A DNA stretch of 64,000 bases. Source: Labia minor (taxonomy: Eukaryota; Arthropoda; Insecta; Dermaptera; Spongiphoridae). The notes under the pieces are model-generated. The model did not search any database. It saw only the letters and a list, made by a program, of their open reading frames with translations, and was not told the origin of the DNA. The DNA lies in contig OY720350.1 in the NCBI GenBank assembly GCA_963082975.1, positions 18,942,910 through 19,006,909 on the forward strand, read 5' to 3'. Shown here piece after piece: positions 375 through 9,144 of this stretch (position 1 is the stretch's first letter; every line of letters starts with the position of its first letter). Made by a program: the position numbers and the translations under genes.

Positions 375-497
375 ATGGGTACGAGAGTTTTCGTTGGTGG
401 ATTAACATACCGTGTTCGGGAACGTGACTTGGAGAACTTCTTCCGCAAATATGGCCGAATCAAGGAGGTTGCAATGAAGAATGGATTTGCCTTTGTG
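375..497 (+). CDS. SR gene alternative first coding exon 1a
   Basis: This exon has 41 codons ending in phase 0 at a GTAAGT donor. It begins [20 protein letters not shown] and ends MKNGFAFV, so it supplies beta1 (RNP2), alpha1, beta2 and half of RNP1 of RRM1. It splices in frame to the exon at 860 ([10 protein letters not shown]). A possible acceptor (ATACCAG) lies just upstream near 352, so it could be reached from a 5'UTR exon to the left. Compared with fly B52 it is the more divergent of the two copies: it lacks the V of the MVG start and has ERDLENFF instead of ERDLERFF. Confidence 0.85.
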
Positions 498-1714
498 GTA
501 AGTCTTTAATCTTTTCTTTTTTTTTTCTTTCAGTATGGTAGGCACCAGAATTTATGTTGGAGGACTTGCATATGGGGTCGGAGAGAGAGATCTAGAAAGA
601 TTTTTTAAACGCTTTGGTCGAATTCGAATTGTTCTTCTTAAAAGAGGTTACGCTTTTCTAGTAAGTATTGAAAACGGGGGGGAAAATGATCGAGTTTATA
701 TATATATAGTTTTTTGATCACCCGTCTAATAATTTATATTTAAATAATCATCATAATCAATATTAATTAAATATGGGATTTCCAAAATATTTTAATGATT
801 AAAAAAAAATATTGAAGTTAATTTAGATAAAAACTTTAATTATAATTATTTTATTACAGGAATTCGATGATTATCGTGATGCAGATGATGCAGTTTATGA
901 ACTCAATGGCAAAGACCTTTTAGGCGAAAGGTAAATTATATTATAGTATAAAATGAACTTGAAATATATTAAATGTTTTATTTTTTCTAATTTTGTATAA
1001 TTTAATTCATATCAATTAAATAAATATCTAATTTATAATTTTATTTTTTTGTTAATATATTTATTATAAATTATAACATTCTATTAATAACTAGTAAAGC
1101 TTAATTTTAAGTAGTTAAATTATTTTTTATGAAGTATTTAACATCTTAAATTAAAATTTCAATATTTCAACTTAAAGCTTTTATATCATTTAATTTTAAT
1201 AATCGTTTGTTTTTTTTTTCACTTTTATTTTTTTTAATTTAGAGTCATAGTTGAACATGCTAGAGGAACTGCAAGAAGAGATCGTGGTTATAACATGAAC
1301 AACTATGGAAGGCGTCGTTCAAATTGGATGGACAAGTATGCAATCAGATTAGACCAACTCCTTTTTCTTTTTTTTTTAACGTTAGGAATTTTTTTTTCCA
1401 AAGATAGAAGACAGTTAATAAAAATCATTGTTTTAGTTTTTTATATTATAAATTATTTTTTTCTTTGATTTTTTTTATTTTAATTAATTATTTTGACTTG
1501 TCATTACTTTCTTTTTTACCCCTTACCTAATTTTATTTTTAGATTTAGTTAAGAGAATGGACTTAATTTTTTTATAGTAGCATTTTCCAGTAGACACTTT
1601 CAATATATACTCACACACATATTTTTAAGTTTTATTTAAAAAAAAAATAAACAATAAAAGTTTGCTTCAAAATTATCGTAGAACTTGCAAATCGTTCTAC
1701 ATTTATTTCTTAAA

Positions 1715-1745
<31 letters not shown>

Positions 1746-4700
1746 AAATAAACTTGTAGATTTGGAATGTACAAAATATAATTCTAATTTAACAATTTTT
1801 TTTTTAATTTTTTTATTCATTTATTTTTTTCGCAAGTGTAGTTTCTTTTTATTTATTTTTTTTTTTTTTAAGAAATATTGAAATTTTATTCAATTTCAAT
1901 GTTTAAATTAAAATTTTTTAATTAGTATGAAAAATTATTTAATAACAATTTTTATATATGATTTTGTGTTACGAGTATCCCTTTTATCAAAAACACAATT
2001 TTCTCTTAATAATAGTTAAATCTGATTCGATCTATATTTGGGTCTGTCTACTCATAATTTATAATTAAGTCCATTAATTCCCTTTATAGTAATTTATCAT
2101 TAACAGGTAAACTGATATTGAAATTTTTCATTTATTAAAATCTAACCCTTAAAATATCAATATTTAGTAAATTAATTAAACTGGAATTTATTATTTCAGA
2201 GACATGGATGTCCGTATTCACGACAGGTATGCATTATTTAAACTTTTTTTATTAGTTATGCATGTAAAATAAATTTAATTTAAAAAAAAATTACTTATTA
2301 TTTTTTAAAGAAAAAAAATTAAAATAATTATTTTTTTTAATTTAATTGTAATTTTGTTTATAAAGGCCCATCATTCAAAATTTATTCAAGGGGTTCCCAA
2401 AGTTTTTAATCTTGGTGGGCCATTTTACAACTATTTTAGGGCCATTTCTTTTCTTTTTTTTTTTATTTATTTATTATTATAATTAACCTGTAGTGAAAAC
2501 ATTTTTTAATTTTACCTAAATCTTTTGTTGTGCGTTTTCAGTCATGTAAAAGAAAAACATTATTTTTCCACGGGCCGCACGGTAGCTCGAGGGCCGCAGT
2601 CGGCCCGCGGTCAGCACTTTGGGAATCCCTGGTATAAGAAACCATTTGGATTTTTAATTACACACTTAGTCTGATTTTATTTTATTGAAAACTCTATTTC
2701 GTACAAAATTCAAAATTAAATTTCTTGATTTTCTTTCACTTTATTATCGATATTTATTATGTATTAATTTTCACATTCTTTTTCACTTTTGATTTATTCC
2801 TATTACTATGTTTGATTTCAAAAATTCATTTGTCTAGATGAGATATATTTAAGTTAATTTTATTATTATTTAGTTTTTTTATTTATATTTTTTTTTTATT
2901 TTTTTTTTTTTTTACTTTCTAACATTTTTTTAATAAGCAGAGATTCCCAAGATGACTGCAAAAGATAATTTATATTAAAAAAAAAGCAAATTTTTGTTAA
3001 ATTTTTCATTTGATTTTGATGGCAAACTTGTAATATTTTTATTTAAAAATTGTATCAATTTTTAACATACTAATTTCGTCCATTCTCAAATATTTGCATG
3101 AAAAAAGCTTTTATTTTAACTTATAATTTGCATTTTTTTATCGCTCTTTTATTAAGATTTTATTTTTTTTTTTATTATACGTATAAATATTTAAATAAAT
3201 AAACAATTATAAATATATATAATTTATATATATATATTTATATTTGTTTATTAATTTATATTAATTATCAACTGGACATTATGAATTTTTGCATTCGTGA
3301 GTTTTCAATAAAGAAAATATCACATTTTTTATTTTATATGTAAGATTATGATCTTTATATTTATTATGTTTATTATTTATTTATAGGTATGGGCCACCAA
3401 CAAGAACGGAATATCGTTTGATTGTTGAAAATCTCTCCAGCCGAGTGAGTTGGCAGGTATGTGATAACCATTTCTCATTTCATGTTTTTTATTTTTAATT
3501 CCATGTTGATATGATTTTTGGGGTTATGTGACAGAGCAGATTTATAATTTTTTTTACACACTTTCACAGCTAGAAAATTTTTCTTCTCATCACCGTAGAA
3601 ATCTTATTCATTTAAATTAATAATGTTAATTAAAATAAAGTTATTCATACTCATTTCATTTCATTTTTTTATATGTTTATTTATATATTTATTTTAATTA
3701 AAACAAACAATTGGAAAACCGATCGGTGAAGCAAGTATTGTTATTTTTTTTTTAATATGAATCGATAGGAAATTAGGAATTGATGTATTGCTTAAGGTTG
3801 GATATGGGGGTTTTTGATCGTTATACTGAAGCAGCCAATGATGCCCTGGAAGAGTCGTGGATGCGCCTTCTGAGAAAATTACAAAGAGCCCAAAACTGAA
3901 GTCAACGAAGTGACCGGAAGACATGAAGATAACACTTATGTTCCATCTCGGAAGAATTAATTCCCACTTATCGGCAATCATGATTCCTAATTTTTTGTTT
4001 AGAAATACTTGATTCACCGATCGGTTCACCAAATTTCTAGGCAGGGTGTATATTTATTATTTTATTTGATTTTTTCACTGCTCTCGTCACTTGAATATTA
4101 CTGAAGTGTTATGCTATTTAAATAAACACTCGTATTTTTCTCCGAAGAGTACTTCTTGGGTCGGATTCGGGAGGGAGGCATCCCCCTCCGCTTAGTCAAG
4201 TACCTAGTACCATGGACCGATGGAGGTTGTACCAAAGTGGTGTGTTCTGCGACCGCGCAGTGGGTGGTGCACGATGTTACCTTGTGGCCGTTTTCGGATT
4301 TCTCTACTTTTCCCCGTCCCATTGAGCCTCACACAGAAAGCGAGCATTTACAGAAGGGCCCAAAGGTAAATGGCGCTAACCACAGTATGTGCACCACTTT
4401 AATTCACCCACCTTACCTGGTTGGTAATCGTCTAGCATGTGCCAATGAGCATATCAGGTTCAGACTACCAAGTTATTAGCTTTGACGTACATATATATTT
4501 ATAACTTCTTCATCAACTTTATAAAGGGGTATGTCCATTTTATATAAGTTTCTAAATGTGCTTGAAATTAGGTCTGATGAATTTAGAGATTCTTTTTTAT
4601 TTCCGGTATTATTTCTCTTTGGGATGTTGTACTTTTTTTTTTTGGTCATCTTTTTCATTAGATTTTTATTATTTTATTTTATTCTTATAATTTCATTTCA

Positions 4701-7579
4701 TATGATTGATTATTTATAAATTTATTTGAATTTTGAAAGTCCCCTTTTTTTTCTATATTCTCTATTTATTGATATAAAATATCTGATCAATTAAAGGAAG
4801 TGAAGAGTTCTCTGGATTTTCTACTTGGCTTCCTCAAAGATCGATATATGGACCACTGGATATTCACAATGAAGATAATACATCTGTACAAATCTCAACT
4901 GGCTTTTTGATATTAATAACTAATAGTCATATTGAAAAAGATTCATTCGTTGGGCTCTGCATAAAAGGATCCAAAAGCAGGATGAGGCTCTTCTGTGGAT
5001 TTCTTCGGATTTATGAGGCTCTACATAATAATCTACAATACTTTAAAAAAGAAGGAAAAATGGCGCTCTAAAAATTTCTTCTAAAAGGGCATCGAGAATT
5101 GATGATTATTATTGGATGGAATGATCTGGAACGATCTGGAACCAACTGATTGGATGACAGCGATGCTTTCTGCTCACCGCGTCGGATTTAAGGATTATTT
5201 TTGTTTTCGCTAAAGGATGGATCATCATTTTGGATAATGTGGCCGTTTGAGTTGACCTGAGTCGCCATCCAGATGCATCTTCAGATCCATTGATACAGAT
5301 ACAGATATTTTTCTCTTTATTATTCAATATTTCTTCTTTTATTTTAATTTTCTTATTAACCTCTTTTTTATATAAAAGAAAAAATTTCATAGATTGTTTA
5401 CTAACAGTTCTTATAATTCTTTACCAAGTGTTATTTGAATCTGTATCGAGAGGATCTTCTTCCTTTTTTTCCTCCAAACTATTTGCTATTTTTACGCGGC
5501 TCTATCGAACCAGCTAATTTCAAGCACTTTTAGAATAAATAATTTTAGAAAAATTATATATATTTCTTTGTTAATGATATTTTTATACCATGACATCATA
5601 CAACATCGATTGAATAGATTGTTTCAAACTTGGTTTCATTTAAAATAGAGCAAAGAAAAAAAATAATTGGAAAAATCCTTTCCGTTTAGTAGCAGAGTTG
5701 ATGTTAGTGTGAGATTAGTGACTTATTATTAAAGTTCATTTGAATAATTGTTTCTTTTGTGATTTATATCACAGGATTTGAAAGATTATATGCGACAAGC
5801 CGGCGAGGTAACATACGCAGATGCCCATAAACAACGCCGTAACGAAGGGTAATTATATTTATTTATTTATTCATATGAAATTTAATTTGTTTTTTTTTTT
5901 TTTTTAATTCTATTTTTAAATTAAATTTATTTTATATAATTTTAAATCTATTATTTTCATTTTAAACATAAATTATTGTTTATTTATATTATAAAACAAA
6001 TTAATATTATTAAAATATATATTTTTTTAATAATTTAAATGATGAGCAAATCTTTCGGGTCTGAAAAGAAATGAAGTTAACTTAGTCCCAATGTGTTCTG
6101 ATAAAAATTGAATTTTTATATATAAGTTGAAATTTTATAAATAAAATTAAATTAATATATAAAATTAATTGTTATTCTAGTGTCGTTGAATTTGCCACTC
6201 ATTCTGATATGAGAAATGCAATTGATAAACTTGATGATACTGAATTAAATGGACGTAGAATTCGATTAATTGAAGATTTGCGAAGAGGCCGTGGTCGGCG
6301 ATCCAGATCTTCAAGCTCTAGATCAAGATCAAGAACCCGTTCTAGGTCCCGAAGACGTTCTAGGACTCGTTCAAGGTAAACTTTTTTTAAATGTTATCCA
6401 ATATTCCTTTATATAATATGAATTTTTCATTTAATTAATTAAATACCATGATGATCAATCATCTTTCGGGTCCTAATTGTCTTGCGGACACAATTCCCAA
6501 CGTTCTGATGTTTTTTTATAACCATTTATTTATTTTTGTAATAAATTATTTAATTTTAAATACCAATTATAGTTATGCTACTGTTTATTCTCGTAGATCT
6601 CGTAGCAGACGAAGCTCTCGAAGCCGTAGTCGTCGTAGCAGCCACAGCAAATCCAAGTCTAAATCAAAATCCAAATCGAAATCTCGCTCTAAATCTAAAT
6701 CCAAGTAAGATTCTTAAAATTTACTTCATTTATATTAATAAAATATTAATAGAAATACATCTTAAATATATATATATAATAAATTAATATAAATTAAATT
6801 CAAATTCACGTTTTAACTAAAAAAATTAAATTATTTTATGATGATTAATCATCTTTCGGGTCTTAATCGACTTGAAGACATTCTCCCAACGTCCTGATAT
6901 TGATAAAGGAATATTTTAAGATAAAAAATAATTTTTTTAATAATGGATAATTTTAATTATTTTATTTTTTTTTAGATCACGTGAACAATCCAAGTCCAAA
7001 TCCAAATCTCGTTCAAGGTCGCGATCCAGGTCTCGTTCACGTTCTCAATCACAATTGAATAATCGCTCAAAATCGCGATCTCAATCTAAATCCAAGGCTA
7101 AATCTGTTTCCAAGTAAGAACAATTTTATTTATATGATTTTTAATTTGTAATATTGTCTTTAAAATGTTCGACATGATGATAAACTACATCTTTCGGGAC
7201 TGAGTTCTTTGAAGACATTAACATCCCACAACGCTCTGAGGCGAACATTTATTAAGAAATTATTACCTTATCTTTCGATTATTTTAATTTTTATCATATT
7301 TCTCTATTTATATTTTCAACCACATTATTTTAAAATTCAAATATTTCATTTTTAAAATTAAAGCAAAATTACTTTTTCATTTAATTAATTTTCTTGATTT
7401 TTTTTTATTATTATTGCAGAGATCGTTCACCTTATCAATCCCCAAGCAAAGATCGAAGCAAATCTAAATCTAAATCTAAATCCAAGTCACCAACACGCAG
7501 TCCTTCAAAAAGTCCTATGAATGATCGAAGTTCCCCTCCAGAAAATGGACGTGACTCAAAAATGGAAGAAGACGATTAA
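375..7579 (+). CDS. B52/SRSF6-like: SR splicing factor, B52/SRSF4-5-6 type (two RRMs plus RS domain)
   Basis: Nuclear splicing regulator that binds exonic enhancers through its RRMs and recruits spliceosome parts through its RS tail. Proposed coding exons: 375-497 or 535-660, 860-930, 1243-1335, 2200-2226, 3387-3456, 5775-5848, 6181-6375, 6597-6704, 6976-7113, 7420-7579. Reading phase is kept at every join, giving 352 or 353 residues. RRM1 covers roughly residues 1-72, with VFVGGL or IYVGGL as RNP2 and [18 protein letters not shown] after RNP1. RRM2 starts near residue 108 ([20 protein letters not shown]) and carries the SR-family SWQDLKD signature. The RS/KS tail runs from about residue 185 to the end, which is [11 protein letters not shown]. 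Length and order match fly B52 as I remember it. The fourth coding exon is a 27-nt microexon. The first coding exon is duplicated, and the last four introns carry snoRNA-like units. Family assignment is firm; orthology among SRSF4, 5 and 6 is not resolved. Confidence 0.95.
535..660 (+). CDS. SR gene alternative first coding exon 1b (tandem duplicate of 1a)
   Basis: This exon has 42 codons from its own ATG, one base after a pyrimidine-rich TTTCAG acceptor at 532-533, and ends in phase 0 at a GTAAGT donor. It begins [20 protein letters not shown] and ends LKRGYAFL, so it encodes the same half of RRM1 as exon 1a with 24 of 40 aligned residues identical. It also splices in frame to 860. Splicing 1a to 1b would remove only 36 bp and would shift the frame, reaching a stop before the end of 1b. 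It therefore behaves as an alternative to 1a, not an extra exon. It is closer to canonical B52 than 1a is. Confidence 0.8.
2388..2631. mobile_element. hAT-type MITE in SR intron 4
   Basis: The left end GGGGTTCCCAAAG and the right end CTTTGGGAATCCCTG are inverted copies of each other. Inside are GC-rich GGGCCGC and GGCCCGCGG segments in an otherwise T-rich body. This is the common 'caggggttcccaaa' hAT end type. No clean 8-bp target duplication remains, so it is probably old. Confidence 0.6.
3718..4025. mobile_element. MITE with 22-bp terminal inverted repeats in SR intron 5
   Basis: ACCGATCGGTGAAGCAAGT at the left is matched by the inverted ACTTGATTCACCGATCGGT at the right, with one mismatch in 22 bp. 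Imperfect pairing continues inward (ATTAGGAAT against ATTCCTAAT). The interior contains short open stretches but no transposase I can name. The superfamily is unknown. Confidence 0.6.
4140..4475. other. GC-richer island in SR intron 5, unassigned
   Basis: About 330 bp with clearly higher GC than its surroundings, and open on both strands (107 codons plus, 74 codons minus). I recognise no protein in either frame and see no flanking repeats. It could be the remnant of a retrocopy or a mobile element. Confidence 0.3.
6032..6109 (+). ncRNA. intronic C/D-box snoRNA-like unit 1
   Basis: C box ATGATGA at 6039-6045, D' box CTGA at 6061-6064, a C'-like TGAAGTT near 6072 and D box CTGA at 6098-6101. 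The short flanks AATTT and AAATT can pair as a terminal stem. The guide ATCTTTCGGGT before D' is complementary to ACCCGAAAGAU of 28S rRNA. The D box lies about 80 nt before the acceptor at 6180, the usual spacing for intron-processed C/D snoRNAs in animals. Confidence 0.7.
6440..6516 (+). ncRNA. intronic C/D-box snoRNA-like unit 2
   Basis: C box ATGATGA at 6448-6454, degenerate D' (CCTA) after the guide, and D box CTGA at 6505-6508. The guide CATCTTTCGGGTC pairs over 13 nt with GACCCGAAAGAUG of 28S rRNA. Before the D box is the shared segment TCCCAACGTT. It sits in the next SR intron, with the D box about 88 nt from the acceptor. Confidence 0.7.
6830..6905 (+). ncRNA. intronic C/D-box snoRNA-like unit 3
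   Basis: C box ATGATGA at 6838-6844, D'-like CTTA, and D box CTGA at 6894-6897. It has the same 13-nt guide CATCTTTCGGGTC as unit 2 and the shared TCCCAACGTC before the D box. The D box lies about 78 nt before the acceptor of the following SR exon. The terminal stem is weak, being AT-rich. Confidence 0.7.
7165..7248 (+). ncRNA. intronic C/D-box snoRNA-like unit 4
   Basis: C box ATGATGA at 7174-7180, D' CTGA at 7200-7203, D box CTGA at 7236-7239. It is bounded by a perfect 7-bp terminal stem, ATGTTCG (7165-7171) with CGAACAT (7242-7248), which is the k-turn-closing stem expected of a C/D snoRNA. The guide CATCTTTCGGG is shared with the other units. This is the best-formed of the four. It lies about 180 nt from its acceptor, further than the others. 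Confidence 0.78.
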
Positions 7580-7740: not shown

Positions 7741-8913
7741 GGAGACAATTAACAATCACCTTTAAAGTTACTTTTAATATTTTTTATTTAAATATAGAAG
7801 TATTTATCTATTTATTTTAATTTATAAAAAATCTAGATATGTTCTTCTATATTTATTAAGAAAAAATTTTCATATTTAATATGAAATTTTTATCCTAAGT
7901 TTATTTCATATTAACTACGGAAAATTTTATATAAAATATAGGGGTTTTAATTTACTAAAAATAAACTTTAATTGTTCTCGTTAGCCAAGCACTTGATGTT
8001 AAAAAATGGAATGGCTGGTTGACGGGTCCATTTGAAGATATACGCTAAGAAAATCATTCATTACATTTTATAAAATATATACAGATGCAATATTTAAAAA
8101 TAATTGTTACTAAGGTAACATTTAAAAAAAATGTGCAAATTATAAGTATTTTTATGTTATTTTAGTACCTGGTGAAATTAAATTTAATATTTTTTTTTTA
8201 AATGTTTAATTTTTTTTAGTAATATATATAACATATATATATATATAAATGTATATATATATATTTAGATTATGATAAATATTATATTCATTATTAATGT
8301 GTTTAAATAAAATAGTCTTGTAAAAAAATTGAAAATTAACTTTATTATAAAAAAAAAATTTTGATATATATATTTTTATTTTTATTTAATTTTCTCTTTA
8401 TTCATGCTCAAAACTCCATTGTTACATATTCCTCTTGAATTCCTTATCCATTGTTCTAATAACAATCATTTTGTTTTTAGTATAATTCATTAAAAATACA
8501 CTAAATATAGATTTAATCTTAATATTATTGAATTGTTAATGATGGTGATTATATTCATATGCAGCCTCAAAAAAAAAAATAATCTGAAAAATTGTCTTCC
8601 AACCCCGTATTTTGCCAAACATTTTGCTAAAAAGAGGCAACCAAAATCATGAGAAAATATTTCAAAAATATCTTGAAAAATTGAACGGGATGCACGTAAA
8701 ATCATCAATTCTAAAATCAAGTATGCAGAAAAGATAAAATCGACTTAAAAATTATGCCCTTGATAACTAAATAACAAGACTAGCATCTAGTCTTAATTAT
8801 AAACCTTATTTGTCCAAAATTGTAAAAGTTTTGTCTCAATATCATATCGATCAATTTTTAAATAAATGTTGCACTATATTTAGGTTTTGTTTTATTTATA
8901 TTGAATGGATTAC
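7741..8913. other. intergenic AT-rich stretch, nothing recognised
   Basis: Contains a (TA)n run at 8218-8270 and poly(A/T) tracts only. Confidence 0.5.
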
Positions 8914-9144
8914 CCCTAAAGCAGGGGTGAGCAACCTTTTTAACCCACGGGCCAATTTAAATTTTAAAATTTTGTGGCGGGCCGCACTTACTAATAATTT
9001 ACAAAGCTTTATATATATACTAATAAACATTATAATATTGTTTATAAATAATCGAGACGAATAATAAAATTATATTTTAGAAATGCTCGGCGGGCCGCAG
9101 AAAAACATTTAAAGGGCCGCGGGTTGCTCATCCCTGCCCTAAAG
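8914..9144. mobile_element. hAT-type MITE with intact 8-bp target duplication
   Basis: The element at 8922-9136 has ends CAGGGGTGAGCAACC and GGTTGCTCATCCCTG in inverted orientation and is flanked on both sides by CCCTAAAG. The interior carries GGGCCGC blocks typical of this family. At 215 bp and with no coding capacity it is non-autonomous. The perfect duplication implies a fairly recent insertion. Confidence 0.88.

What the first reader, a model, noticed from the sequence alone, without database searches (positions are those of the whole stretch)
6032..7248. Four paralogous C/D snoRNA-like units, one in each of the last four introns of an SR gene
Each unit has ATGATGA (C) and CTGA (D) 49-62 nt apart, a D'-like box at the same offset, and the same block ATCTTTCGGG before it. 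Exons between them are SR coding sequence, so the units were spread intron by intron, probably by duplication or retroposition. Unit 4 has a perfect 7-bp closing stem. I know of no report of this snoRNA family being hosted by an SRSF gene.
Basis: partly seen in the sequence, partly recalled or inferred. Interest (0 to 1): 0.85.

Follow-up and report, generated by a model that had tools for sequence, protein, structure and literature searches.

The report
Four SNORD2-like snoRNAs in SR-gene introns
Four sister copies of a small RNA that probably guides one chemical mark on the ribosome sit one per intron in the last four introns of a splicing-factor gene; the RNA type is an old, known one, but I did not come across this host gene and four-fold copying in the papers I could search.

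Summary
Four box C/D snoRNA-like units (6039-6101, 6448-6508, 6838-6897, 7174-7239, all +) lie one in each of the last four introns of an intact two-RRM SR gene (coding exons within 375-7579). The shared block ATCTTTCGGG is the D' guide: it pairs with this genome's own 28S rRNA at ACCCGAAAGAT, and D'+5 gives the G of CCCG, the site of yeast snR39B and human SNORD2. That site is the best match of 4 of 4 D' regions in a 15.5-kb rDNA stretch, and SNORD2 is the one Rfam family that matches all four, though at 22-25 bits against a cut-off of 37. Boxes and guide are invariant (21 of 21 columns), linkers mostly not (10 of 46).
In 3 of 4 units the D guide also pairs with the rRNA just 5' of the target, like a yeast accessory guide. 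Units 1-3 end 78-88 nt before the 3' splice site; unit 4 ends 180 nt away but has a 9-bp closing stem, as splicing-coupled assembly predicts. Expression, methylation and conservation in relatives could not be tested. A new member of a known kind.

The parts
6039..6101 (+). Unit 1: box C/D snoRNA-like; C box 6039-6045, D' guide 6050-6059, D' CTGA 6061-6064, D box 6098-6101
6448..6508 (+). Unit 2: box C/D snoRNA-like; C box 6448-6454, D' guide core 6461-6470 with rRNA complementarity running on through a degenerate D' (CCTA, 6472-6475), D box 6505-6508
6838..6897 (+). Unit 3: box C/D snoRNA-like; C box 6838-6844, D' guide core 6851-6860, degenerate D' (CTTA, 6862-6865), D box 6894-6897
7174..7239 (+). 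Unit 4: box C/D snoRNA-like; C box 7174-7180, D' guide 7189-7198, D' CTGA 7200-7203, D box 7236-7239; 9-bp closing stem AAATGTTCG/CGAACATTT
375..497 (+). Host SR gene, coding exon 1a (first part of RRM1)
860..930 (+). Host SR gene, exon 2 (rest of RRM1)
1243..1335 (+). Host SR gene, exon 3
3387..3456 (+). Host SR gene, exon 5 (start of RRM2)
5775..5848 (+). Host SR gene, exon 6 (RRM2)
5849..6180 (+). Intron hosting unit 1; 79 nt from D box to 3' splice site
   Evidence: my count; one search prints 80
6181..6375 (+). Host SR gene, exon 7 (end of RRM2, start of RS domain)
6376..6596 (+). Intron hosting unit 2; 88 nt from D box to the 3' splice site (64 nt to an alternative in-frame acceptor ending at 6572)
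   Evidence: my count; one search prints 89 and 66
6597..6704 (+). Host SR gene, exon 8 (RS domain)
6705..6975 (+). Intron hosting unit 3; 78 nt from D box to 3' splice site
   Evidence: my count; one search prints 79
6976..7113 (+). Host SR gene, exon 9 (RS domain)
7114..7419 (+). Intron hosting unit 4; 180 nt from D box to 3' splice site
   Evidence: my count; one search prints 181
7420..7579 (+). Host SR gene, last coding exon, ends ...MEEDD stop

Best explanation
The four units are intron-encoded box C/D snoRNAs of SNORD2/snR39B type. They are released from introns of the SR pre-mRNA after splicing, bind the C/D core proteins, and use the D' guide (ATCTTTCGGG and flanking bases) to direct 2'-O-methylation of one 28S nucleotide, the G of ACCCGAAAGAU (yeast Gm803, human Gm1509 in the table seen; also numbered 805 and 1522, recalled). 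In units 1-3 the region before box D pairs with the rRNA directly 5' of that target (ACACGUUGGGAC), most likely as an accessory guide that strengthens binding, possibly as a second guide. Shown here: boxes, complementarity to this genome's own rRNA, intron geometry, differential conservation. Inferred: expression, processing, methylation, and the role of the D guide.
For: The best match of the D' region of 4 of 4 units in a 15.5-kb rDNA stretch is the same 28S site, with duplexes of -21.1 to -34.1 kcal/mol. SNORD2 RF01299 is the one family matching 4 of 4 units, 22.2-25.2 bits. A published table row gives RF01299 and SnR39B this kind of target (PMC3511168, passage; the human name is printed there as snR38b), and SNORD2 modifies 28S 1509 (PMC10324135, passages); a human SNORD2 primer printed there, read on the other strand, holds CATCTTTCGGGACTGA exactly as unit 4 does. 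21 of 21 box and guide columns are invariant against 10 of 46 other columns inside the units (Fisher P 3e-10). Distances to the 3' splice site are 79, 88 (or 64), 78 and 180 nt (my count); the far unit alone has a 9-bp closing stem, the others 5-6 bp, in line with a reported optimal branch-point distance and stem compensation (PMC8162545 and PMC10234308, passages). D guides of units 1, 2, 3 pair beside the target with shuffle P of 0.0003, 0.0027, 0.008; accessory pairing is documented in yeast (PMC5389607, passages).
Against: 0 of 4 units reach SNORD2's gathering score of 37. Such sub-cut-off scores are weak alone: genome-wide unit 1 has E 3.75, the best match lies elsewhere, and 12 of 14 prokaryotic control genomes also give sub-cut-off matches. 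For unit 1 snosnR61 scores the same (25.3 bits, higher E-value), and TtnuCD19 scores 28.5 bits over a stretch that overlaps unit 4's guide. Unit 4's D' region wins only narrowly (score 30, next 28 and 27). D' is not CTGA in 2 of 4. Unit 4's D guide does not pair near the target (P 0.72), and over the mature rRNAs the best D-guide scores of units 1-3 are not significant (P 0.06, 0.57, 0.74). The local test window was chosen, and the units are not independent. Folding is no better than shuffles (z 0.10 to -0.83). No expression data, no relatives.
Confidence: 0.9

Rival explanations
1. Only one or two of the four copies are working snoRNAs; the others are decaying duplicates.
For: D' is degenerate in units 2 and 3, and unit 4's D guide does not pair beside the target. 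Mammalian snoRNAs exist in many copies (PMC8178906, abstract start in a listing) and many intronic ones count as non-expressed (PMC10234308, passages, which sort snoRNAs into expressed and non-expressed).
Against: C box, D box and the 10-nt guide are invariant in 4 of 4 while linkers vary; units 2 and 3 have the strongest rRNA duplexes (-34.1 and -30.9 kcal/mol); 3 of 4 are placed near the reported optimum and the fourth has a long stem.
Confidence: 0.2
2. The units are cis-acting splicing elements of the SR gene, as human SNORD2 is for EIF4A2, pairing with the downstream intron to hide the branch point; rRNA guiding is secondary.
For: Human SNORD2 does this in its own host (PMC10324135, passages). 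The intron of unit 2 has two in-frame acceptors, and SR genes are commonly controlled by their own splicing (abstract start of PMC4379411 in a listing).
Against: Unit-to-downstream-intron duplexes are no stronger than with shuffled introns in 4 of 4 (P 0.775, 0.955, 0.795, 0.51).
Confidence: 0.08
3. Chance resemblance, or a dispersed repeat carrying C/D-like motifs.
For: A fifth genomic place matches C box plus block, and the backwards control pattern matches 3 times.
Against: That fifth place (L001) has no CTGA within 70 bases of the guide start. 0 of 100 shuffles give the full pattern. A DNA search of the genome with unit 4 returns only unit 4; since it does not return units 1-3 either, it excludes only close copies.
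Confidence: 0.02

Closest known systems
SNORD2 (human, EIF4A2 intron; Rfam RF01299; yeast snR39B)
   Same: Same D' guide and same 28S target; unit 4 shares CATCTTTCGGGACTGA with the human sequence (a primer printed in PMC10324135, read on the other strand); C'-like TGAAG follows D' in units 1, 3 and 4 in the alignments; intronic.
   Different: Host is an SR gene; four copies in four introns; scores below the Rfam cut-off; a D guide that pairs with rRNA beside the target in 3 of 4 units; no sign of pairing with the host intron.
Drosophila genes hosting several snoRNAs (Uhg1-Uhg8, lola, Arpc2, dom; PMC13228274, passages)
   Same: Several intronic snoRNAs in one host gene.
   Different: Those named in the passages seen include no SR gene. 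The fly counterpart of this site (Me28S-G980) is recalled only; the library search for that name found 0 papers.
Yeast snoRNAs with extra base-pairing (snR13, U18; PMC5389607, passages)
   Same: A second stretch of the snoRNA pairs with rRNA next to the guide's target.
   Different: Here the stretch lies directly before box D; its effect is untested. In the passages seen, extra pairing was critical for snR13 but made no difference in the U18 construct.

Membership tests
Box C/D 2'-O-methylation guide snoRNA | C box RTGATGA near the 5' end and D box CTGA near the 3' end | tested here: met
   4 of 4
Box C/D 2'-O-methylation guide snoRNA | Antisense element of 10 or more nt to rRNA directly upstream of D or D' | tested here: met
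   4 of 4, against the genome's own 28S; the D' letters themselves are canonical in 2 of 4
Box C/D 2'-O-methylation guide snoRNA | Terminal closing stem | tested here: inconclusive
   9 bp in unit 4, 5-6 weaker bp in units 1-3
Box C/D 2'-O-methylation guide snoRNA | Stable RNA bound by fibrillarin, NOP56, NOP58, SNU13 | not testable with these tools
   needs small-RNA sequencing or immunoprecipitation
SNORD2 / snR39B | D' guide selecting the G of 28S ACCCGAAAGAU by the D'+5 rule | tested here: met
   4 of 4 by position (my count)
SNORD2 / snR39B | Score over the Rfam gathering cut-off of RF01299 | tested here: not met
   22.2-25.2 bits against 37, 0 of 4 over; so described as same-guide type, not filed as an Rfam member
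SNORD2 / snR39B | 2'-O-methylation of that G in this species | not testable with these tools
   needs RiboMeth-seq
SR protein host (SRSF4/5/6 type) | Two RRMs followed by an RS domain, open frame across spliced exons | tested here: met

The most novel reading that the evidence does not exclude
A splicing-factor gene has become the only source of one rRNA methylation guide, in four copies whose release depends on splicing that the host's own protein may help control, so that dosage of a ribosome mark is tied to SR autoregulation. The copies have also gained a bipartite rRNA grip (D and D' guides side by side on one 28S stretch of some 20-24 nt) and possibly a second, lineage-specific methylation 9 or 11 nt upstream.
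Probability: 0.12. Interest if true: 0.6.

Novelty: new member of a known kind. Interest (0 to 1): 0.35.

Why it matters
It would show an ancient rRNA methylation guide housed in a splicing-factor gene and multiplied intron by intron. The gene gives a natural test of two mechanisms in one transcript: whether a long closing stem replaces correct distance from the branch point, and whether paired D and D' guides raise methylation at one site. It would not change the picture of snoRNA function.

Tried and rejected
Rfam at gathering score: 0 families in the whole window. The genome-wide SNORD2 model search gave 7 places at E up to 10, none over the cut-off; two are units 1 and 3, and none of the other five holds ATCTTTCGGG in its 120-base core (the script read the printed strand, and the one minus-strand match, L017, I read by eye on the other strand). 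Units 2 and 4 were not among the 7, only 61 of 163,506 first-look candidates were scored, and 12 of 14 control genomes rang too, so that search neither proves nor excludes further copies. A DNA search with unit 4 returned only itself and not units 1-3, so it is blind to copies at about 80% identity. A pattern with a degenerate C box did not complete in eight tries. A diverged fifth copy is therefore not excluded; only the exact pattern ATGATGA, 3-10 nt, ATCTTTCGGG was searched through the genome.

Unit 4's D guide has a 14-nt match elsewhere in 28S (L010 7291-7304; shuffle P 0.023) with a mismatch at the fifth base from box D, so I did not claim it as a guide. I first recalled Drosophila Me28S-G1083 as the counterpart; by position G980 fits (recalled, not tested).

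Full report
What is there. The window lies in an unnamed 604-Mb genome (G000, contig C9). At its left end is an SR-protein gene on +: coding exons 375-497, 860-930, 1243-1335, 3387-3456, 5775-5848, 6181-6375, 6597-6704 (or 6573-6704), 6976-7113 and 7420-7579 join in frame with gt/ag ends to a protein of 343 aa (351 with the longer exon 8). Pfam finds two RRM stretches; an RS tail follows. In each of its last four introns is one unit with ATGATGA, ATCTTTCGGG and CTGA.

More than chance. The full pattern occurs 4 times in the window and 0 times in 100 shuffles. There are 30 C boxes on both strands; 4 are followed by a D box with a 10-nt rRNA match between, all of them these units, against 0.68 on average and at most 3 in 100 shuffles. 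In the whole genome ATGATGA, 3-10 nt, ATCTTTCGGG occurs 5 times: these four and one place on C6 without a CTGA in the 70 bases from its guide start. The same pattern read backwards occurs 3 times, so a stray match is expected.

What the block is. I recalled that ATCTTTCGGG is antisense to a conserved 28S stretch, then took the genome's own rDNA and located 18S, 5.8S and 28S by Rfam. For 4 of 4 units the best match of the D' region over 15.5 kb of rDNA is the same site, within TTGGGACCCGAAAGATGG. The lead over the next best match is clear for units 1-3 (32 to 24, 45 to 26, 44 to 28) and narrow for unit 4 (30 to 28). Duplexes with the site reach -24.1, -34.1, -30.9 and -21.1 kcal/mol. Counting five from D' gives the G of CCCG. 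A table row in PMC3511168 (passage) lists RF01299 at Gm1509 in human and SnR39B, RF01299, at Gm803 in yeast; PMC10324135 (passages) gives 28S 1509 for SNORD2. In units 2 and 3 the complementarity runs on through the D' position, which is CCTA and CTTA there.

Rfam. SNORD2 is the one family that matches 4 of 4 units (25.2, 22.2, 23.8 and 22.3 bits for units 1-4), all below the gathering score of 37. Single units also match other families at like scores: snosnR61 25.3 bits for unit 1, and TtnuCD19 28.5 bits for a stretch that overlaps unit 4's guide. Genome-wide, unit 1 has E 3.75 and 12 of 14 prokaryotic controls give matches below the cut-off. The case rests on the guide and its target, not on the Rfam score.

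The D guide. Before box D, units 1-3 hold CCCAA followed by C or T and G. It pairs with the rRNA just 5' of the D' target: best hit in the rDNA for units 1 and 3, tied second for unit 2. Against shuffled guides the score near the target has P 0.0003, 0.0027 and 0.008; unit 4 has P 0.72; the best scores over all the mature rRNA have P 0.06, 0.57, 0.74 and 0.02 for units 1-4, the last at another place. The local window was chosen after the first look, and paralogues are not independent. Extra base-pairing of this kind can stimulate methylation in yeast, though it made no difference in a U18 construct (PMC5389607, passages), and is suggested for some vertebrate snoRNAs (PMC8522698, passages). By the D+5 rule unit 1 would also point at the C 11 nt upstream of the main target, and units 2 and 3 at the U 9 nt upstream; I recall no known methylation there and did not look for one.

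How it is made. Box C/D snoRNAs assemble best about 40-50 nt upstream of the branch point, and a terminal stem often compensates for other positions (PMC8162545 and PMC10234308, passages). From D box to 3' splice site I count 79, 88 (64 to the other acceptor), 78 and 180 nt from the exons. The one far unit has the one long stem: 9 Watson-Crick pairs against 5-6 weaker ones. Branch points themselves were not predicted.

Copying and constraint. Units are 75-87% identical, units 2 and 3 most; 60-nt flanks are not similar beyond shuffles in 12 of 12 comparisons. Box and guide columns are invariant, 21 of 21, against 10 of 46 other columns inside the units and 1 of 20 flank columns. This points to constraint on the snoRNA, though the alignment holds only four related sequences and the guide was first noticed because it is shared.

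A cis role. Human SNORD2 pairs with its host intron and hides a branch point (PMC10324135). I tested the analogue: in 4 of 4 units pairing with the downstream intron is no stronger than with shuffled introns (P 0.775, 0.955, 0.795, 0.51). The idea remains open but has no support here.

Literature. Ten searches of an open-access library were used. None of the listed titles and abstract starts showed a SNORD2-type snoRNA in an SR gene, but the lists are capped (8 to 20 rows of up to 69,731 papers), and the main Drosophila snoRNA survey is not held, so absence from print is not established. Host genes of expressed human snoRNAs are enriched for RNA binding, processing and splicing functions (PMC10234308, passage), which makes an SR host less surprising.

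Noticed in passing
375-497 and about 535-660: The first half of RRM1 is encoded twice in tandem by intact, different exons (..[38 protein letters not shown] and ..[38 protein letters not shown]), each with ATG and gtaagt and under 50 nt apart, too close to be spliced together: probably mutually exclusive first coding exons giving two RRM1 versions of the SR protein.
   Followed up: partly
about 2200-2226: A possible 27-nt in-frame cassette microexon (ag|AGACATGG...GACAG|gtatgc) in the long intron between exons 3 and 5 (by eye).
   Followed up: no
6573-6596: Two in-frame acceptors 24 nt apart after unit 2, which would add or leave out eight residues in the RS domain.
   Followed up: no
2360-2640 and 8910-9140: Two stretches that share G+C-rich 'gggccgc' motifs in A+T-rich surroundings and look by eye like copies of a dispersed element.
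   Followed up: no
L010 6758-6775 (28S): This genome's 28S has TTGGGACCCG where other animals have TTAGGACCCG (recalled); all 8 places found by the search (7 +, 1 -; a lower bound) carry this change, and the D guides of units 1-3 carry the matching CCCAA.
   Followed up: partly
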